A stretch of 36,419 nt of DNA. Source: Solirubrobacterales bacterium (GTDB lineage: Bacteria; Actinomycetota; Thermoleophilia; Solirubrobacterales; 70-9). The position numbers were made by a program, and so were the translations under genes. Each line of letters begins with the position of its first letter. Within the stretch, counting starts at the first letter, position 1. The stretch covers positions 1-36,419 of the forward strand of contig JAGQUO010000012.1 in assembly GCA_020438445.1 (NCBI GenBank), written 5' to 3'. Below are positions 10,497 to 16,559 of the stretch, in pieces. The notes beneath the pieces are model-generated. The model was given only the letters and a program-made list of their open reading frames with translations, was not told the DNA's origin and searched no databases.

Positions 10497-13400
10497 CTAG
10501 GAGCCGGGCAGTGACCGGGCGGCGGGCTGGTCGACCTCGGAATCGACGGTGCCGTCGTCGCCGAGCTCGTCGTCGGAGGGCAGCTCGCCCCCGCGATCGG
10601 TCCCGGCGATCAGCTCGTCCGGCTTCGGTTCGTCGGGCACGAAGCCCGACTTCATGCCGAAGTAGACCGCCTGCGGATGGTGAGCGATGATCGCGACCGT
10701 GGACTGCTCCGGCTCGACTGCGTAGCCGGTCGAGAGCGTCATCCCGATCTCCTCGAGACCGAGCAGACGCCACACCTTCTCGTGCTCGGACTGGTCCGGG
10801 CACGCCGGATAGCCCCAGGAGTAGCGCCGCCCCTGCGCCGGCGGGATCCCGAGCTCGCCGCGGGCGCCGGCATGAAGCCACTCCGCGAGACCCTCGGCCG
10901 CCTGGACGCCGAGCCCGTGGACGTAGAGCTGCTCGGCGAATTCGCCGTCGCGCTCGAGCTGCCCGATCCTCCGCGTCACCTCCGGCCCGACCGTCACCCC
11001 CTGCAGCACGACGACGTCCCGCTCGCCGGAGTCGATCGGGCGGAAGAAGTCGGCGAGGCAGATCCGGTCGTGGCGAGGCTGGCGCGGGAACACGAGCCGC
11101 TCGAGCTCCCGATCCGGGTCGTCGGGATCGAAGACGACGAGCTCGTTGCCGTCGGCGTTGCACGGGAAGTAACCGATGCGGGCCTTCGGCTCGAGGTAGT
11201 CCTGCTCGTTCCACATCCGTTCGAGGCGGGCGCTGAAGCCCTCGTCGTCCCCGTCGCCCTCGACGATCTTCCGCCACGCCTCGCCCTTGACCCCGCGGCC
11301 GCCCCAGTGGAGCTTGAAGAGGACGTGCCGGTCGAGGTAGGGGAACACCTGCTCGAGGTCGATGCCGACGTCGCGGACCCCGTAGACGACGTCCGGCACC
11401 GGGTTCGCGGTGCTGACCGCCGAGCGGACCGAGTCGTCGCTGGTCGGCGGCGCATCGTCCACCTCGACGGGCTTCTCCCGGAGCTGCCTGGCCTCGTCGC
11501 GGATCTTCGTGATGAGCGCATCCCTGGCGTCGTCGTCGATCAGGGCATCGACGGTGTCGAGCCCCGCGAACGCGTCCTTGCAGTAGAAGACGCCCGGCTC
11601 GTAGAGCTCGTCGGAGTCACGGCCGTTCGGATAGAGGGCGCGGCGCCCGAAGTCCCGATTGATCGCGGCACCGCCGATCAGCACCGGGAATCCGAGCCCG
11701 CGCTCGTGCAGCTCCTGGATGCACGCGGGCATCTGCTTCGACGTGGAGACCAGCAGCGCCGACAGGCCGATCGCATCGGCGTCGTTCTCGACGGCGGCGT
11801 CGATGATCTGCTCGATCGGCACCTGCTTGCCCAGGTCGACGACCGTGTAGCCGTTGTTGGTGAGAATCGTGTTGACCAGCGATTTCCCGATGTCGTGGAC
11901 GTCGCCGAAGACGGTCGCGATCACGACCGTCCCCTTCGTGTGCCCCTCGATCCGGTCGAGGTACCGCTCGAGCTGCGCGACGGCGCGCTTCATCACCTCG
12001 GCCGACTGCAGGACGAAGGGCAGGATCAGCTCCCCGGCGCCGAACTTGTCGCCGACCTCCTTCATCGCGGGCAGCAGCACCTCGTTCAAGGTCGGCACCG
12101 CTCCGATCTTCTCGACGGAGCGGTCGATCCAATCCTCGACCCCGTCCTTGCGGCGGCGCAGGATCTGGAAGTGGAGCGCCTCCTCGGGCTCCATCCCCTC
12201 GGTCGGATCGCCGGCCGCCGCTTCCTCCTCCTCCGGGCCCTTGCTCTCGAAGTGGGCGATGAACCGCTCGAGTGCGTCCTCGGAGCGGTTGAAGACCAGG
12301 TCGTCGGCCAGCTCGCGTTCGCCGGCGGGAATCTCGCCGTAGGGCGTGATGTGGTTCGGATTCACCATCGCGAGGTCGAGCCCGGCCTCGACGCAGTGGT
12401 GGAGGAAGACCGAGTTGAGGACCGCCCGCGCTCCCTGCGAGATCCCGAACGAGACGTTCGACACCCCGAGCGAAGTCTTCACGCCGTGAAGCGAGGACTT
12501 GATCCGGCGGATCCCCTCGATCGTCTCGACGGCCGACGGCTTCCACTCGTCGTCGCCCGTCGTCAGCGTGAAGGTCAGGGCGTCGAAGATCAGCAGCTCG
12601 GGATCGAGCCCGTGCTCATCGCAGGCGAGGCGGTGGATCTCGCGCGCCACCTCGAGCTTGCGCTCAGCCGTCTTCGCCATCCCCGTCTGATCGATCGTCA
12701 GCGCGATCAGCGCCGCCCCATGGCGCAGCGCGAGCGGGACTATCCGGTCGAGCTTCTCGCGGCCGGCCTCCAGGTTCACCGAATTGACGACCGCCCTGCC
12801 GGGAATCCGCTCCAGGGCCGCCTCGATCACCTCGGGCTCGGTCGAGTCGACCTGTATCGGGGCGGGCTGGGTGAGCGAGATCCGGCTGACGGTCTCTCCC
12901 ATCTGCGCGTCCTCGTCCTGTCGCTCGGTGAGCGCAACACAGACGTCGAGGACGTGCGCGCCGCCCTCGACCTGATCCTCGGCCACGCGGACGAGCCCGT
13001 CGTAGTCGTCCGCGAGCAGGAGCTCCTTCGCCTTCCGCGATCCCTGCGAGTTCACGCGCTCGCCGACGAGCGTCGGGCGCGGCTCCTGGACGAGGTCGAC
13101 CGCGGTCATCATGCTCGCGAGCCGCACCGGGCCCGGCGCCGGGCGGGGCTTCGGCTCGATTCCCCGAACGCGCTCGGCGATCGCCGCGATGTGGTCGGGC
13201 GTGGTGCCACAGCAGCCACCGACGAGGCCGACGCCGTGGCGCTCGACGAACTCGCCGAGCACCTTCGCGATCTGCTCCGGCGTCTCGGGGAAGATCGTCT
13301 CGCCGTCGGGCCCCTGGAGCGGGAGGCCCGCGTTCGGGATGCAGTGGACCGGCAGCGGCGACGTCTCGCCGAGGTAGCGGATCGCGTCGCGCATGTCCTC

Positions 13401-14111
13401 GGGGCCGGTCGAGCAGTTCAGCCCGATGATGTCGACGCCCATCCCCTCGGCGATCGCCAGCACCGCCTGGACGTCGGTGCCGAGCAGCATCTTGCCGCCG
13501 TTCGGGAGCAGCGACACGGAGACCTGGATCGGGACCGCCCGGCCGACCCGGCCGAATGCGGTCCGGGCGCCGGCGATCGCCGCCCTCACCTCGAGGATGT
13601 CCTGTGCGGTCTCGATGATCAGCAGGTCGGCCCCACCCTCGACGAGCGCGCCGGCCTGCTCGTCGAACACCGCGGCGAGGCGGCCGAAGGTGATGTCCCC
13701 GAGCGTCGGGTCGTCGCTGGCCGGGAGAAAGCCGGTCGGCCCGATCGAGCCGGCGACGAAGCGCTCCGGGCCTGCGGCCTCGCGGGCGATCTCAGCCGCC
13801 TTCCGGTTGATCTCGACGGTGCTCTCGCCGAGGCCCCACTCGTCGAGCTTGAGCCGCGAGCCCTGGAAGGTGTCGGTCTCGACCACCTCCGCTCCGGCCT
13901 CGAGCATCGCCTCGTGGACGCCCGCGATCACGTCGGGGCGATGCACCACCAGCGCCTCGTGGCACTTCCCGGGCAGCCCGCCGTAATCCTCGGACGACAG
14001 GTCGTAGCGCTCGAGCGTGGCACCCATCCCGCCGTCGAAGACGATGATCCGCTCGCGCGCTGCGGCGAGGATGTCGCGTTCGGCTTGACTCACTCGGAAG
14101 GTCACCTCCAT
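10497..14111 (-). CDS. metH: Cobalamin-dependent methionine synthase
   Basis: A 1204-aa multidomain enzyme that remethylates homocysteine with methyl-tetrahydrofolate through methylcobalamin. In order: homocysteine/zinc domain (about 15-320; Zn Cys233, Cys300, Cys301 in LNCS and GGCCGTTPDH), pterin-binding domain (about 340-610), cobalamin cap and Rossmann domain (about 635-875; DVHDIG with axial His739, then SALLVST), and reactivation domain (about 900-1165; RYSWGYPACPD for SAM binding). It is full length like E. coli MetH. The open frame extends to GTG 14129, but that codon lies in a conserved S-box motif, so ATG 14111 is preferred. It has no good SD and sits in the riboswitch P1 helix. SAM should therefore repress it. 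Confidence 0.96.
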   Translation of the reverse strand: MEVTFRVSQAERDILAAARERIIVFDGGMGATLERYDLSSEDYGGLPGKCHEALVVHRPDVIAGVHEAMLEAGAEVVETDTFQGSRLKLDEWGLGESTVEINRKAAEIAREAAGPERFVAGSIGPTGFLPASDDPTLGDITFGRLAAVFDEQAGALVEGGADLLIIETAQDILEVRAAIAGARTAFGRVGRAVPIQVSVSLLPNGGKMLLGTDVQAVLAIAEGMGVDIIGLNCSTGPEDMRDAIRYLGETSPLPVHCIPNAGLPLQGPDGETIFPETPEQIAKVLGEFVERHGVGLVGGCCGTTPDHIAAIAERVRGIEPKPRPAPGPVRLASMMTAVDLVQEPRPTLVGERVNSQGSRKAKELLLADDYDGLVRVAEDQVEGGAHVLDVCVALTERQDEDAQMGETVSRISLTQPAPIQVDSTEPEVIEAALERIPGRAVVNSVNLEAGREKLDRIVPLALRHGAALIALTIDQTGMAKTAERKLEVAREIHRLACDEHGLDPELLIFDALTFTLTTGDDEWKPSAVETIEGIRRIKSSLHGVKTSLGVSNVSFGISQGARAVLNSVFLHHCVEAGLDLAMVNPNHITPYGEIPAGERELADDLVFNRSEDALERFIAHFESKGPEEEEAAAGDPTEGMEPEEALHFQILRRRKDGVEDWIDRSVEKIGAVPTLNEVLLPAMKEVGDKFGAGELILPFVLQSAEVMKRAVAQLERYLDRIEGHTKGTVVIATVFGDVHDIGKSLVNTILTNNGYTVVDLGKQVPIEQIIDAAVENDADAIGLSALLVSTSKQMPACIQELHERGLGFPVLIGGAAINRDFGRRALYPNGRDSDELYEPGVFYCKDAFAGLDTVDALIDDDARDALITKIRDEARQLREKPVEVDDAPPTSDDSVRSAVSTANPVPDVVYGVRDVGIDLEQVFPYLDRHVLFKLHWGGRGVKGEAWRKIVEGDGDDEGFSARLERMWNEQDYLEPKARIGYFPCNADGNELVVFDPDDPDRELERLVFPRQPRHDRICLADFFRPIDSGERDVVVLQGVTVGPEVTRRIGQLERDGEFAEQLYVHGLGVQAAEGLAEWLHAGARGELGIPPAQGRRYSWGYPACPDQSEHEKVWRLLGLEEIGMTLSTGYAVEPEQSTVAIIAHHPQAVYFGMKSGFVPDEPKPDELIAGTDRGGELPSDDELGDDGTVDSEVDQPAARSLPGS

Positions 14112-14204
14112 CGGTCCCGGCTGTCGCACCGTGCTCCGCCGATCTCCAGACGGCGCCGGTTGCGGCGGCTTCCGAGGTCCGGGTCCCTCAGCCGCTCTTG
14201 ATGG
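14108..14204 (-). ncRNA. S-box (SAM-I clan) riboswitch controlling metH
   Basis: The minus-strand leader matches the SAM-I consensus in order: P1 5' strand CCATC (14204-14200), AAGAG (14199-14195), P2 GCGGC (14195-14191) paired with GCCGC (14169-14165), GAGGGA (14189-14184), GCAACC (14163-14158), P3 CGCCG/CGGCG (14155-14151 with 14141-14137), GGTGC (14130-14126), a short P4 GGT/ACC, and P1 3' strand GATGG (14112-14108). The P1 3' strand contains the metH ATG at 14111. SAM binding stabilises P1, so a translational off-switch that hides the start codon is inferred. Subtype (SAM-I versus a SAM-I/IV variant) is not settled. Confidence 0.88.
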
Positions 14205-14214
14205 GCGAGCAACA

Positions 14215-14220
14215 AGGATA
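14215..14220 (-). promoter_or_regulatory. candidate -10 box of the SAM riboswitch/metH transcript
   Basis: TATCCT on the minus strand fits TANNNT and predicts a transcript start near 14207, only a few nt before the P1 helix. The RNA would thus start with the riboswitch itself. No -35 is clear. Confidence 0.5.
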
Positions 14221-14243: not shown

Positions 14244-16559
14244 CTACGCGCGAATCCGCTCGTCCGCCTCGTCGACCGGCTGCAAGCGGACCGGTGCGGC
14301 GCTGAGCGCCCGGAGCCGGACGTCCGACCAGCTCATCCCCTCCCGGACCAGGGCCGGAACGCCGAGGCCCACGGCGGTGGCGATCTCCACCGCCTGCAGG
14401 ATCACGCCGTAGGCGAGCGCATCGGCGGCGTCGACGCCGTAGCCGGTGGTGAGGACGCTGATCACGGCGAGCTGGAAGACGCCGATGTTCGACGGCGTGG
14501 CCGGGATCACCGCCGTCACGTTGACGGCGAACAGGACGGCCGCCGCGCCGGCGAGTCCCATGGCGCCGTCGAGGCCCATGGCCACGGCGAGCGCCCAGCA
14601 GGCGGCGACCTGGATCGCCCAGGCGATGATCTGCAGCGCGCCGGCCACCGGGGCGCGGCGGGGGTCCCGGAACACGGCGAGCCCGCGCCGCACCCGGACC
14701 AGTGCGCTGCGCACCATCGTCGCGAGCCGCGCGAGCCTGCCGCTGCCCGAGCGCCGGACGGCGGCGGGCGCCGCGATCACGGCGACGAGCAGCATCGCCG
14801 GCGCGAGGCTGACCAGGAAGAGGTGCTCGGAGGTCCGGTGGAAGAGGTCCGTCGAGCTGACGATGATCGCGCCGAGCAGGACGAGCGCGAGGACGTTGAA
14901 GACCGTCTGCGACACGAGGGTGCCGAGCAGGATCGGGAACGTCTCCCGGAACCGGCCGATGCGCCGCGCGATGACCATCGCGCGGGCGGGCTCGCCGAGG
15001 CGGGCCGGCAGCGTGGCCGACATCAGGACCCCGATCATCGTCGCCGACGTGAAGTCCCGCCGGCGCAGCGGGGTTCGCGGCAGGGCCGAGCGAGCCGTCT
15101 GGAACCAGGCGCCGGCACGGAAGAACATCGACGTGCACATGAGCGCGGTCGCGACCGCCACCCATGCGAAGTCGGAGCGGACAGCGCTCTCGACCACGGA
15201 GTCGAAGCCGATGCGCCGAGCCGCCAGGAAGGTCAGGGCGAATCCTGCGAGGGCACCGATCCCGAGCCCGAGCCGGCGGGCGACCCGGCGGCGGCGCGGC
15301 GTCGTGTCGACCGGCATCGGCTCCGGCGAGGGAATCCGGGCCGCGGGCGCCCGCGGCAATCCGTCCGCCGGCGCGAAGCCGTGGCGCTGCGCGATCCTGG
15401 TCAACCGGTCGGCGGGCTGCGGAACCGACAACGCCCGCTCGTAGACCTGCTCGACCCGGGCGGCGATCCGCGGCCACGCGAAGCGCTCCGCGCTCTCCCG
15501 CGCCGCCTCCCCCATCTCCACCCGCCGGTCGGGTTCGACGTGAAGGCGCAGCAGCTCCTCGGCGAGGCGCTGCGGATCGCCGGGAGGGATCAGGACGCCG
15601 TCGACCCCGTGCTCGACGACATCCGCGTATCCGGCGATCTCCGAGGCGATCACGGGCGTGCCGGCGGCGAAGGCCTCGGTCAGCACCATCCCGAAGCTCT
15701 CGCCCGAGAGCGAGGGGGCGCAGAGCACGTCGGCGGCGGCCAGCTCCGACCAGAGCCGCTTCCGCTCGACTGCTCCCAGGGCCTCGATTTCCGCGAGCGT
15801 CTCGGGGTCAGCGAGGTTCCGGGCGATGTCCTCGGGGGCGGTCCCGATCACGACGAGGCGCGCGGGGATGTGCTCGACCAGCGCCTCGAAGGCGCGGAGC
15901 AGGACCGGCAGGCCCTTGCGCTCCTCGGGCCGCCCGACGAAGAGCAGGCGCAGCTCCTCGCGGCCACCGTCCAGCGCCTGCTGGTCGGCGAGCCCGACGT
16001 CGACCCCGTTCGGGATGATCTCGTAGCTGCCGCCGTACCAGCGCTTCCCGGTCCACTCGGCGGCCTCCGAGACTGCGATCCGGGCGCTGAGCTGGTTGAA
16101 CTTGCGCCGGGCACCGAGCCCGATCGCGATCTGCTGGGGAATGAGCTTGGGGGCGTAGGCGTGGAAGGTGCCGACCACCGGAGCGCCGCCGAAGCCGCAC
16201 GCGTCCCAGCCGAGCGTAGGCGCAGGAGGCTCCTGGACGTGAACGACGTCGAAACCTCCGTCGCGGAGCTCACGGCGAAGCGACGCGATCGCGTCGGGGA
16301 AGACGGAGAGGTTCGAGACGGCACCGTTGGCGCCGAAGCCGACCGTGCGCCCGAGCGGGGTCAGGTAATCCGGCATCGGGCGGACCCGCGGCGAGGCACC
16401 GCGGTGGAGCGTACGGCTGAGGCGGTCCGGCGGGTCCCACGGCGAGAGGACGCGGACTTCGTTTCCCCTCCCGATCAGATGCTCGGCAAGCGCTTGGGTG
16501 TGCCGGTTGACGCCTCCCTCGTACGTCCACGAATAAGGCGTGACAAGGGCAATGCGCAT
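14244..16559 (-). CDS. Fusion of GT4 glycosyltransferase and LPG-synthase/UPF0104-type membrane domain
   Basis: This 771-aa protein joins two families. Residues 1-380 are a GT-B, GT4 glycosyltransferase: Gly-rich N-terminal loop (YEGGVNRH), VGRPEERKG at 208-216 at the start of the donor domain, and the E-x7-E pair (E287, E295 in GESFGMVLTE). It resembles PimA-like phosphatidylinositol mannosyltransferases and other lipid-linked sugar transferases. A basic, Pro-rich linker (about 385-430) leads to 7-8 membrane helices (430-740) with the PARLGEPARAM and PATPSNIGVFQLAV motifs of pfam03706-like LPG synthase TM proteins, a family that includes lipid flippases and AglD-like proteins. The likely job is to glycosylate a lipid at the inner face and move or modify it. 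The gene follows the membrane-protein gene by 16 nt. Confidence 0.87.
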   Translation of the reverse strand: MRIALVTPYSWTYEGGVNRHTQALAEHLIGRGNEVRVLSPWDPPDRLSRTLHRGASPRVRPMPDYLTPLGRTVGFGANGAVSNLSVFPDAIASLRRELRDGGFDVVHVQEPPAPTLGWDACGFGGAPVVGTFHAYAPKLIPQQIAIGLGARRKFNQLSARIAVSEAAEWTGKRWYGGSYEIIPNGVDVGLADQQALDGGREELRLLFVGRPEERKGLPVLLRAFEALVEHIPARLVVIGTAPEDIARNLADPETLAEIEALGAVERKRLWSELAAADVLCAPSLSGESFGMVLTEAFAAGTPVIASEIAGYADVVEHGVDGVLIPPGDPQRLAEELLRLHVEPDRRVEMGEAARESAERFAWPRIAARVEQVYERALSVPQPADRLTRIAQRHGFAPADGLPRAPAARIPSPEPMPVDTTPRRRRVARRLGLGIGALAGFALTFLAARRIGFDSVVESAVRSDFAWVAVATALMCTSMFFRAGAWFQTARSALPRTPLRRRDFTSATMIGVLMSATLPARLGEPARAMVIARRIGRFRETFPILLGTLVSQTVFNVLALVLLGAIIVSSTDLFHRTSEHLFLVSLAPAMLLVAVIAAPAAVRRSGSGRLARLATMVRSALVRVRRGLAVFRDPRRAPVAGALQIIAWAIQVAACWALAVAMGLDGAMGLAGAAAVLFAVNVTAVIPATPSNIGVFQLAVISVLTTGYGVDAADALAYGVILQAVEIATAVGLGVPALVREGMSWSDVRLRALSAAPVRLQPVDEADERIRA

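What the first reader, a model, noticed from the sequence alone, without database searches (positions are those of the whole stretch)
14108..14220. SAM riboswitch that appears to lock the metH start codon inside its P1 helix
Seen: the leader holds the S-box motifs in order (AAGAG, GAGGGA, GCAACC, GGTGC), and P1 pairs CCATC (14204-14200) with GATGG (14112-14108). The latter contains ATG 14111. No SD or separate expression platform lies between aptamer and gene. The -10 TATCCT puts the transcript start almost at P1. Known: SAM binding stabilises P1 in SAM-I riboswitches. Inferred: one helix acts as both aptamer clamp and translation lock, an unusually compact design. The automatic start GTG 14129 falls in the conserved GGTGC motif.
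Basis: partly seen in the sequence, partly recalled or inferred. Interest (0 to 1): 0.82.

Follow-up and report, generated by a model that had tools for sequence, protein, structure and literature searches.

The report
SAM riboswitch overlapping metH ribosome-binding site
A SAM-sensing RNA switch sits directly on the ribosome-binding site of the vitamin-B12-dependent methionine synthase gene of an actinobacterium and probably shuts translation off when SAM is plentiful; this direct design was already described for this bacterial group, and the codon said to be locked inside it is very probably not the start codon.

Summary
The S-box aptamer is real: RF00162 matches 14207-14105 (-) at 42.9 bits, E 1e-8, 1.5 bits under the curated cut-off, and relatives recur across the order with compensatory changes in P2, P3 and the P2-loop pseudoknot. 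P1 (CCATC 14204-14200 / GATGG 14112-14108) is real too. The special claim fails. GATGG runs straight into GGAGGTGA (14109-14102), a full Shine-Dalgarno sequence, followed after 8 nt by GTG 14093, where MetH homology begins. A same-genus relative has ATG at that place and its P1-ATG out of frame; P1-ATG cannot start metH in 7 of 12 metH-linked sites. So P1 overlaps the SD, not the start codon. The arrangement (no P4 helix, SD fused to the 3' strand of P1, start 7-14 nt on) recurs in 27 Solirubrobacterales sites and about 50 in Rhodococcus, Nocardia, Pseudonocardia, Cellulomonas and others. [quoted passage not shown] An ordinary member of a known kind; interest low. SAM binding and regulation were not tested.

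The parts
14215..14220 (-). -10-like element TATCCT, 10 nt before P1; predicted transcript start about 14208
   Evidence: Sequence; TANNNT ending 8-12 nt before CCATC found 15 times among 27 Solirubrobacterales sites. No sigma-70 two-hexamer match by the scan, so the -35 is not identified.
14108..14206 (-). SAM-I (S-box) aptamer without a P4 helix
   Evidence: RF00162 42.9 bits, E 1.2e-8 over 14105-14207; covariance model R1 built from relatives; compensatory changes
14200..14204 (-). P1 5' strand CCATC
   Evidence: P1 pairs form in 98.8% of cells in 16 sequences, but nearly invariant, so no covariation of its own
14165..14195 (-). P2 with kink-turn: GCGGC 14195-14191 pairs with GCCGC 14169-14165; inner stem begins GGG 14187-14185
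14179..14183 (-). P2 loop CCCGG, 5' strand of the pseudoknot
   Evidence: pairs with 14120-14116; C-G to G-C change on both sides in 3 of 16 sequences
14125..14164 (-). P3 (CGCAACCG 14164-14157 with CGGTGCG 14131-14125); holds the automatic start GTG 14129
   Evidence: C-G to A-U change on both sides in 4 of 16 sequences
14116..14120 (-). J3/4 CCGGG, 3' strand of the pseudoknot; 13 nt from GGTGC to P1, no room for P4
14108..14112 (-). P1 3' strand GATGG, containing ATG 14111-14109
14102..14109 (-). Shine-Dalgarno GGAGGTGA, first two G's shared with P1
   Evidence: GGAGG at this place in 24 of 27 Solirubrobacterales sites
14091..14093 (-). most likely metH start codon GTG
   Evidence: MetH homology begins here (VSQAERD / VSQPERD / MSQPERD), ATG in same-genus G002
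10497..14093 (-). metH, cobalamin-dependent methionine synthase, 1198 aa
   Evidence: Pfam S-methyl_trans, Pterin_bind, B12-binding_2, B12-binding, Met_synt_B12

Best explanation
A SAM-I riboswitch of the direct translation type. Transcription starts a few bases before P1. With little SAM the 5-bp P1 helix is weak, ribosomes reach GGAGGTGA (14109-14102) and start metH at GTG 14093. Shown by sequence: aptamer, overlap of P1 with SD, conserved spacing, gene. Inferred: SAM binding, OFF logic, steric plus pairing block, and the exact start codon.
For: RF00162 match 42.9 bits with all motifs and relatives up to 62 bits; 97% of cells paired and 4 pairs with changes on both sides, against 31-53% paired when slid; GGAGG after P1 in 24 of 27 Solirubrobacterales sites and an SD-like run of 4 or more in 49 of 52 other actinobacterial hits, the latter found with a search pattern that ended at GATGG; start codons 8-14 nt beyond P1; MetH homology starting at GTG 14093 and ATG at the same place in G002; no terminator between aptamer and gene, whereas the canonical S-box of the same assembly, upstream of a threonine-synthase-like ORF, is followed by a terminator-like hairpin with a T-run; the same mechanism class described by Barrick & Breaker 2007 (PMC2258182).
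Against: No binding or expression data. P1 itself hardly varies, so it has no covariation support of its own. Only 2 of the 8 SD bases lie in P1. Thermodynamic folding without tertiary contacts gives partial SD pairing in every state tried and does not by itself show a clean switch. GTG lies 11 nt after GGAGG, at the long end of usual spacing.
Confidence: 0.85

Rival explanations
1. One reading: metH starts at ATG 14111 inside P1, so P1 hides the start codon itself.
For: ATG 14111 is in frame with metH here and in 4 of the other metH relatives (L005, L007, L009, L015); L007 and L009 have no ATG, GTG or TTG between the SD and the conserved MetH sequence, so there only CTG or an upstream start remains.
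Against: No SD lies upstream of 14111, while a full SD follows it; in 7 of 12 metH-linked sites the P1-ATG is out of frame or stopped, including same-genus G002 and the copy on contig C14 of the same assembly; among all 27 sites the P1-ATG frame closes within 30 codons in 15.
Confidence: 0.06
2. A SAM-I/IV- or SAM-IV-like RNA in which the P3 loop pairs with the SD (a second pseudoknot).
For: P4 is absent as in SAM-IV (PMC6890682), and a few relatives carry CUUCC or CCUCC in the P3 arm.
Against: P3 loops vary freely (UCCG and CCAG tetraloops, UGAU, GAGA) and most cannot pair with GGAGG (read by eye); RF00162 outscores the other clan models; the kink-turn and P2-loop pseudoknot of SAM-I are present.
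Confidence: 0.05
3. A decayed aptamer without function, kept only by relatedness.
For: Score just below the Rfam cut-off.
Against: Core invariant across genera and families with compensatory changes; relatives score up to 62 bits; the low score is probably due largely to the missing P4, which many other sites lack as well.
Confidence: 0.03

Closest known systems
SAM-I riboswitch (S-box, RF00162) with direct translation attenuation, as classed by Barrick & Breaker 2007 (PMC2258182)
   Same: SAM-I core; RBS incorporated in the 3' side of P1; start codon within 15 nt of the aptamer's end (GTG 14093 begins 14 nt past P1); [quoted passage not shown]
   Different: Nothing essential. This one lacks P4; I could not check from the text whether their actinobacterial examples did too.
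SAM-IV riboswitch (RF00634)
   Same: Shared ligand core, no P4; known from actinobacteria
   Different: Here a SAM-I kink-turn stands in P2; no sign of the P5 hairpin or of the second pseudoknot; RF00162 scores better
SAM-I/IV variant (RF01725)
   Same: Shared ligand core
   Different: The variant lacks the internal loop in P2 (PMC2864571); here it is present
Terminator-linked S-box RNAs of the same order (L043-L069 for the most part, L001)
   Same: Same core; some also lack P4 (11-12 nt from GGTGC to P1)
   Different: P1 is ACATC/GATGT and is followed by a terminator-like hairpin, not by an SD

Membership tests
SAM-I riboswitch (RF00162) | Covariance-model match at the curated threshold | tested here: inconclusive
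   42.9 against 44.4 bits, E 1.2e-8; 12 of 15 direct-type matches in relatives exceed the threshold
SAM-I riboswitch (RF00162) | P1, kink-turned P2, P3 around the conserved AAGAG, GCAACC, GGTGC core | tested here: met
SAM-I riboswitch (RF00162) | Pseudoknot between P2 loop and J3/4 | tested here: met
   CCCGG 14183-14179 with CCGGG 14120-14116; 3 of 16 sequences changed on both sides
SAM-I riboswitch (RF00162) | P4 helix (present in the consensus; treated here as variable, not defining) | tested here: not met
   Only 2 nt stand where the model has 18; 13 nt from GGTGC to P1 in nearly all direct-type sites; P4 is also missing in terminator-type S-boxes of the order
SAM-I riboswitch (RF00162) | Binds SAM | not testable with these tools
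   Needs in-line probing or calorimetry
Direct translation attenuation (Barrick & Breaker 2007) | Start codon within 15 nt of the end of the aptamer core, RBS in 3' side of P1 | tested here: met
   GTG 14093 begins 14 nt after GATGG; SD shares two bases with P1
SAM-IV / SAM-I/IV | Second pseudoknot between P3 loop and sequence after P1, P5 hairpin (SAM-IV); no P2 internal loop (SAM-I/IV) | tested here: not met
   P3 loops not conserved or complementary (read by eye); P2 internal loop present. P5 was judged only from sequence.

The most novel reading that the evidence does not exclude
The P4-less S-box with the SD fused to P1 is one coherent subtype found across Actinomycetota, in which one block (CGATGGAGG) serves as P1 strand and ribosome-binding site at once; and in a subset the in-frame P1-ATG is also used as an alternative start, giving a second, SAM-locked form of MetH.
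Probability: 0.06. Interest if true: 0.45.

Novelty: new member of a known kind. Interest (0 to 1): 0.18.

Why it matters
It corrects a start-codon call and a mechanistic claim, and it shows that compact SAM-I riboswitches sitting on the ribosome-binding site are common in Actinobacteria yet can slip just under Rfam's threshold when P4 is missing, so that default annotation overlooks some of them.

Tried and rejected
(1) A second pseudoknot between P3 loop and SD: suggested by CUUCC/CCUCC in a few relatives, rejected because loops vary and include plain tetraloops (read by eye, no statistical test). (2) Extension of P1 through the SD by bases upstream of CCATC: duplex energies no better than with upstream bases swapped between members or taken at random. 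(3) P4 loss as something special to this type: rejected, terminator-type S-boxes of the order also lack it. (4) ViennaRNA folding of the leader to show a clean two-state switch: uninformative, SD partly paired in all states, without tertiary contacts or ligand. (5) Checking the organism's own anti-SD: no 16S gene found in the assembly. (7) Trausch et al. 2014 and Weinberg et al. 2008 on the SAM clan are not in the library.

Full report
What is there. The - strand between the upstream ORF (ending at 14244) and metH carries the S-box motifs in order. A default Rfam scan of the window lists nothing, but the permissive scan gives RF00162 over 14207-14105 at 42.9 bits, E 1.2e-8, 1.5 bits short of the curated 44.4. 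The alignment spans the model end to end; the one large deletion is the P4 region (2 nt in place of 18). Searching the window's own assembly finds three S-boxes: a canonical one at 81.2 bits (C133), one at 43.4 bits (C14) and this one. A DNA search of relatives and an Rfam scan of their loci show the same element, mostly upstream of metH, in related genera, scoring 39 to 62 bits.

Is it more than chance. On 16 related sequences the proposed P1, P2, P3 and P2-loop pseudoknot form standard pairs in 97% of cells, against 31-53% when the 3' partners are slid; four pairs show changes on both sides: one in P2, one in the pseudoknot (C-G to G-C in three sequences) and two in P3 (one of them C-G to A-U in four). 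P1 itself is nearly invariant and so gives no covariation evidence; the invariance is what one expects if its 3' strand is also part of the ribosome-binding site, but that is inference.

The start codon. The sequence from 14112 reads GATGGAGGTGACCTTCCGAGTGAGTCAAGCC: GGAGGTGA at 14109-14102 is an eight-base complement of the usual bacterial 16S tail (general knowledge; this assembly has no 16S gene), and GTG 14093 follows 8 nt later, in frame. MetH similarity starts there: VSQAERDILAA here, VSQPERDILAA and MSQPERDILAA in the two same-genus genomes. In G002 a one-base difference puts the P1-ATG out of frame, where it closes after six codons, while an ATG stands at the place of GTG 14093. Of 12 metH-linked sites, the P1-ATG is out of frame or stopped in seven. 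Two relatives (L007, L009) have no ATG, GTG or TTG after the SD, so they must use CTG or an upstream start; one (L008) seems to need ATT or CTG, or holds an assembly error. That the P1-ATG frame is open in 5 of 12 is weak evidence for it, since about one in three would be in frame by chance.

The group. A covariance model built from 16 relatives, ending at P1 so as not to include the SD, hits 199 of 232 genomes of the order; 27 sites at 72 bits or more are of the type seen here, and most of the lower-scoring sites that I read are terminator-linked S-boxes. A pattern ending at GATGG, run over genome contigs, gave 115 stretches (80 listed), and the model gives 63 matches in them, among them Solirubrobacterales MAGs, Rhodococcus, Nocardia, Pseudonocardia, Gordonia, Citricoccus, Cellulomonas, Sanguibacter and Quadrisphaera. 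After GATGG comes AGG in 24 of 27 Solirubrobacterales sites and in 27 of 52 others, mostly with GAG or AAG in the rest; a run of five or more SD bases occurs in 96% and 63% against 12% and 6% in shuffled controls. The pattern and the model were blind to bases after GATGG, but the first relatives, from which the model was built, were found with a DNA query that included the SD. Start codons lie 8-14 nt after P1 in the Solirubrobacterales sites and mostly 7-14 nt in the others, P4 is absent throughout (12-14 nt from GGTGC to P1), and a TANNNT element ends 8-12 nt before P1 in about half of the sites.

How it works. By analogy with SAM-I riboswitches in general (established knowledge) SAM should stabilise P1; here that would take the first two SD bases into a helix and put a folded RNA against the rest. 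No terminator lies between aptamer and gene (one search found one weak terminator-like match, upstream of the aptamer at 14244-14220). Folding calculations without ligand and tertiary contacts show partial SD pairing in all states and do not decide.

What is known. [quoted passage not shown] they class a riboswitch so when the start codon is within 15 nt of the aptamer's end (PMC2258182). This element fits. SAM-IV (PMC6890682) also lacks P4 but has P5, a second pseudoknot and a different turn in P2; the SAM-I/IV variant lacks the P2 internal loop (PMC2864571). I found no paper in the library that treats P4-less SAM-I RNAs as a type, but many subscription papers are missing, so I do not claim that this is new.

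Verdict. A SAM-I riboswitch of the direct translation type upstream of metH, new only as an individual case.

Noticed in passing
L017:1501-2414 (contig C14 of the same assembly): A second metH start, 86% identical over 241 aa, behind the same riboswitch. It runs to the contig end and the assembly has only one Met_synt_B12 domain, so it may be a partial paralogue or a stray contig of a relative.
   Followed up: partly
L017, L010 (=L028), L013 (=L026): In some relatives the SD is followed by an 8-15 codon ORF whose stop overlaps the metH ATG (ATGA), which suggests translational coupling through a leader peptide.
   Followed up: partly
L031, L034-L041, L050, L051 (mostly genus g10), also L012, L024: The same direct-type riboswitch stands before short hypothetical proteins, several with CxxC pairs (zinc-ribbon-like), not before metH; L031 (G018) has two such riboswitches about 400 nt apart. 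Several share a TGTCAG element about 30-40 nt upstream of P1.
   Followed up: partly
L001 (contig C133): The canonical S-box of the same assembly, with P4 and a terminator-like hairpin, precedes a 415-aa ORF that reads like threonine synthase (judged by eye, no family search).
   Followed up: partly
L008, L007, L009: metH relatives without ATG, GTG or TTG between SD and the conserved N-terminus; ATT or CTG starts, or assembly errors.
   Followed up: no
window 14244-14220 (-): Weak terminator-like hairpin just before the -10 region, right after the upstream ORF.
   Followed up: no
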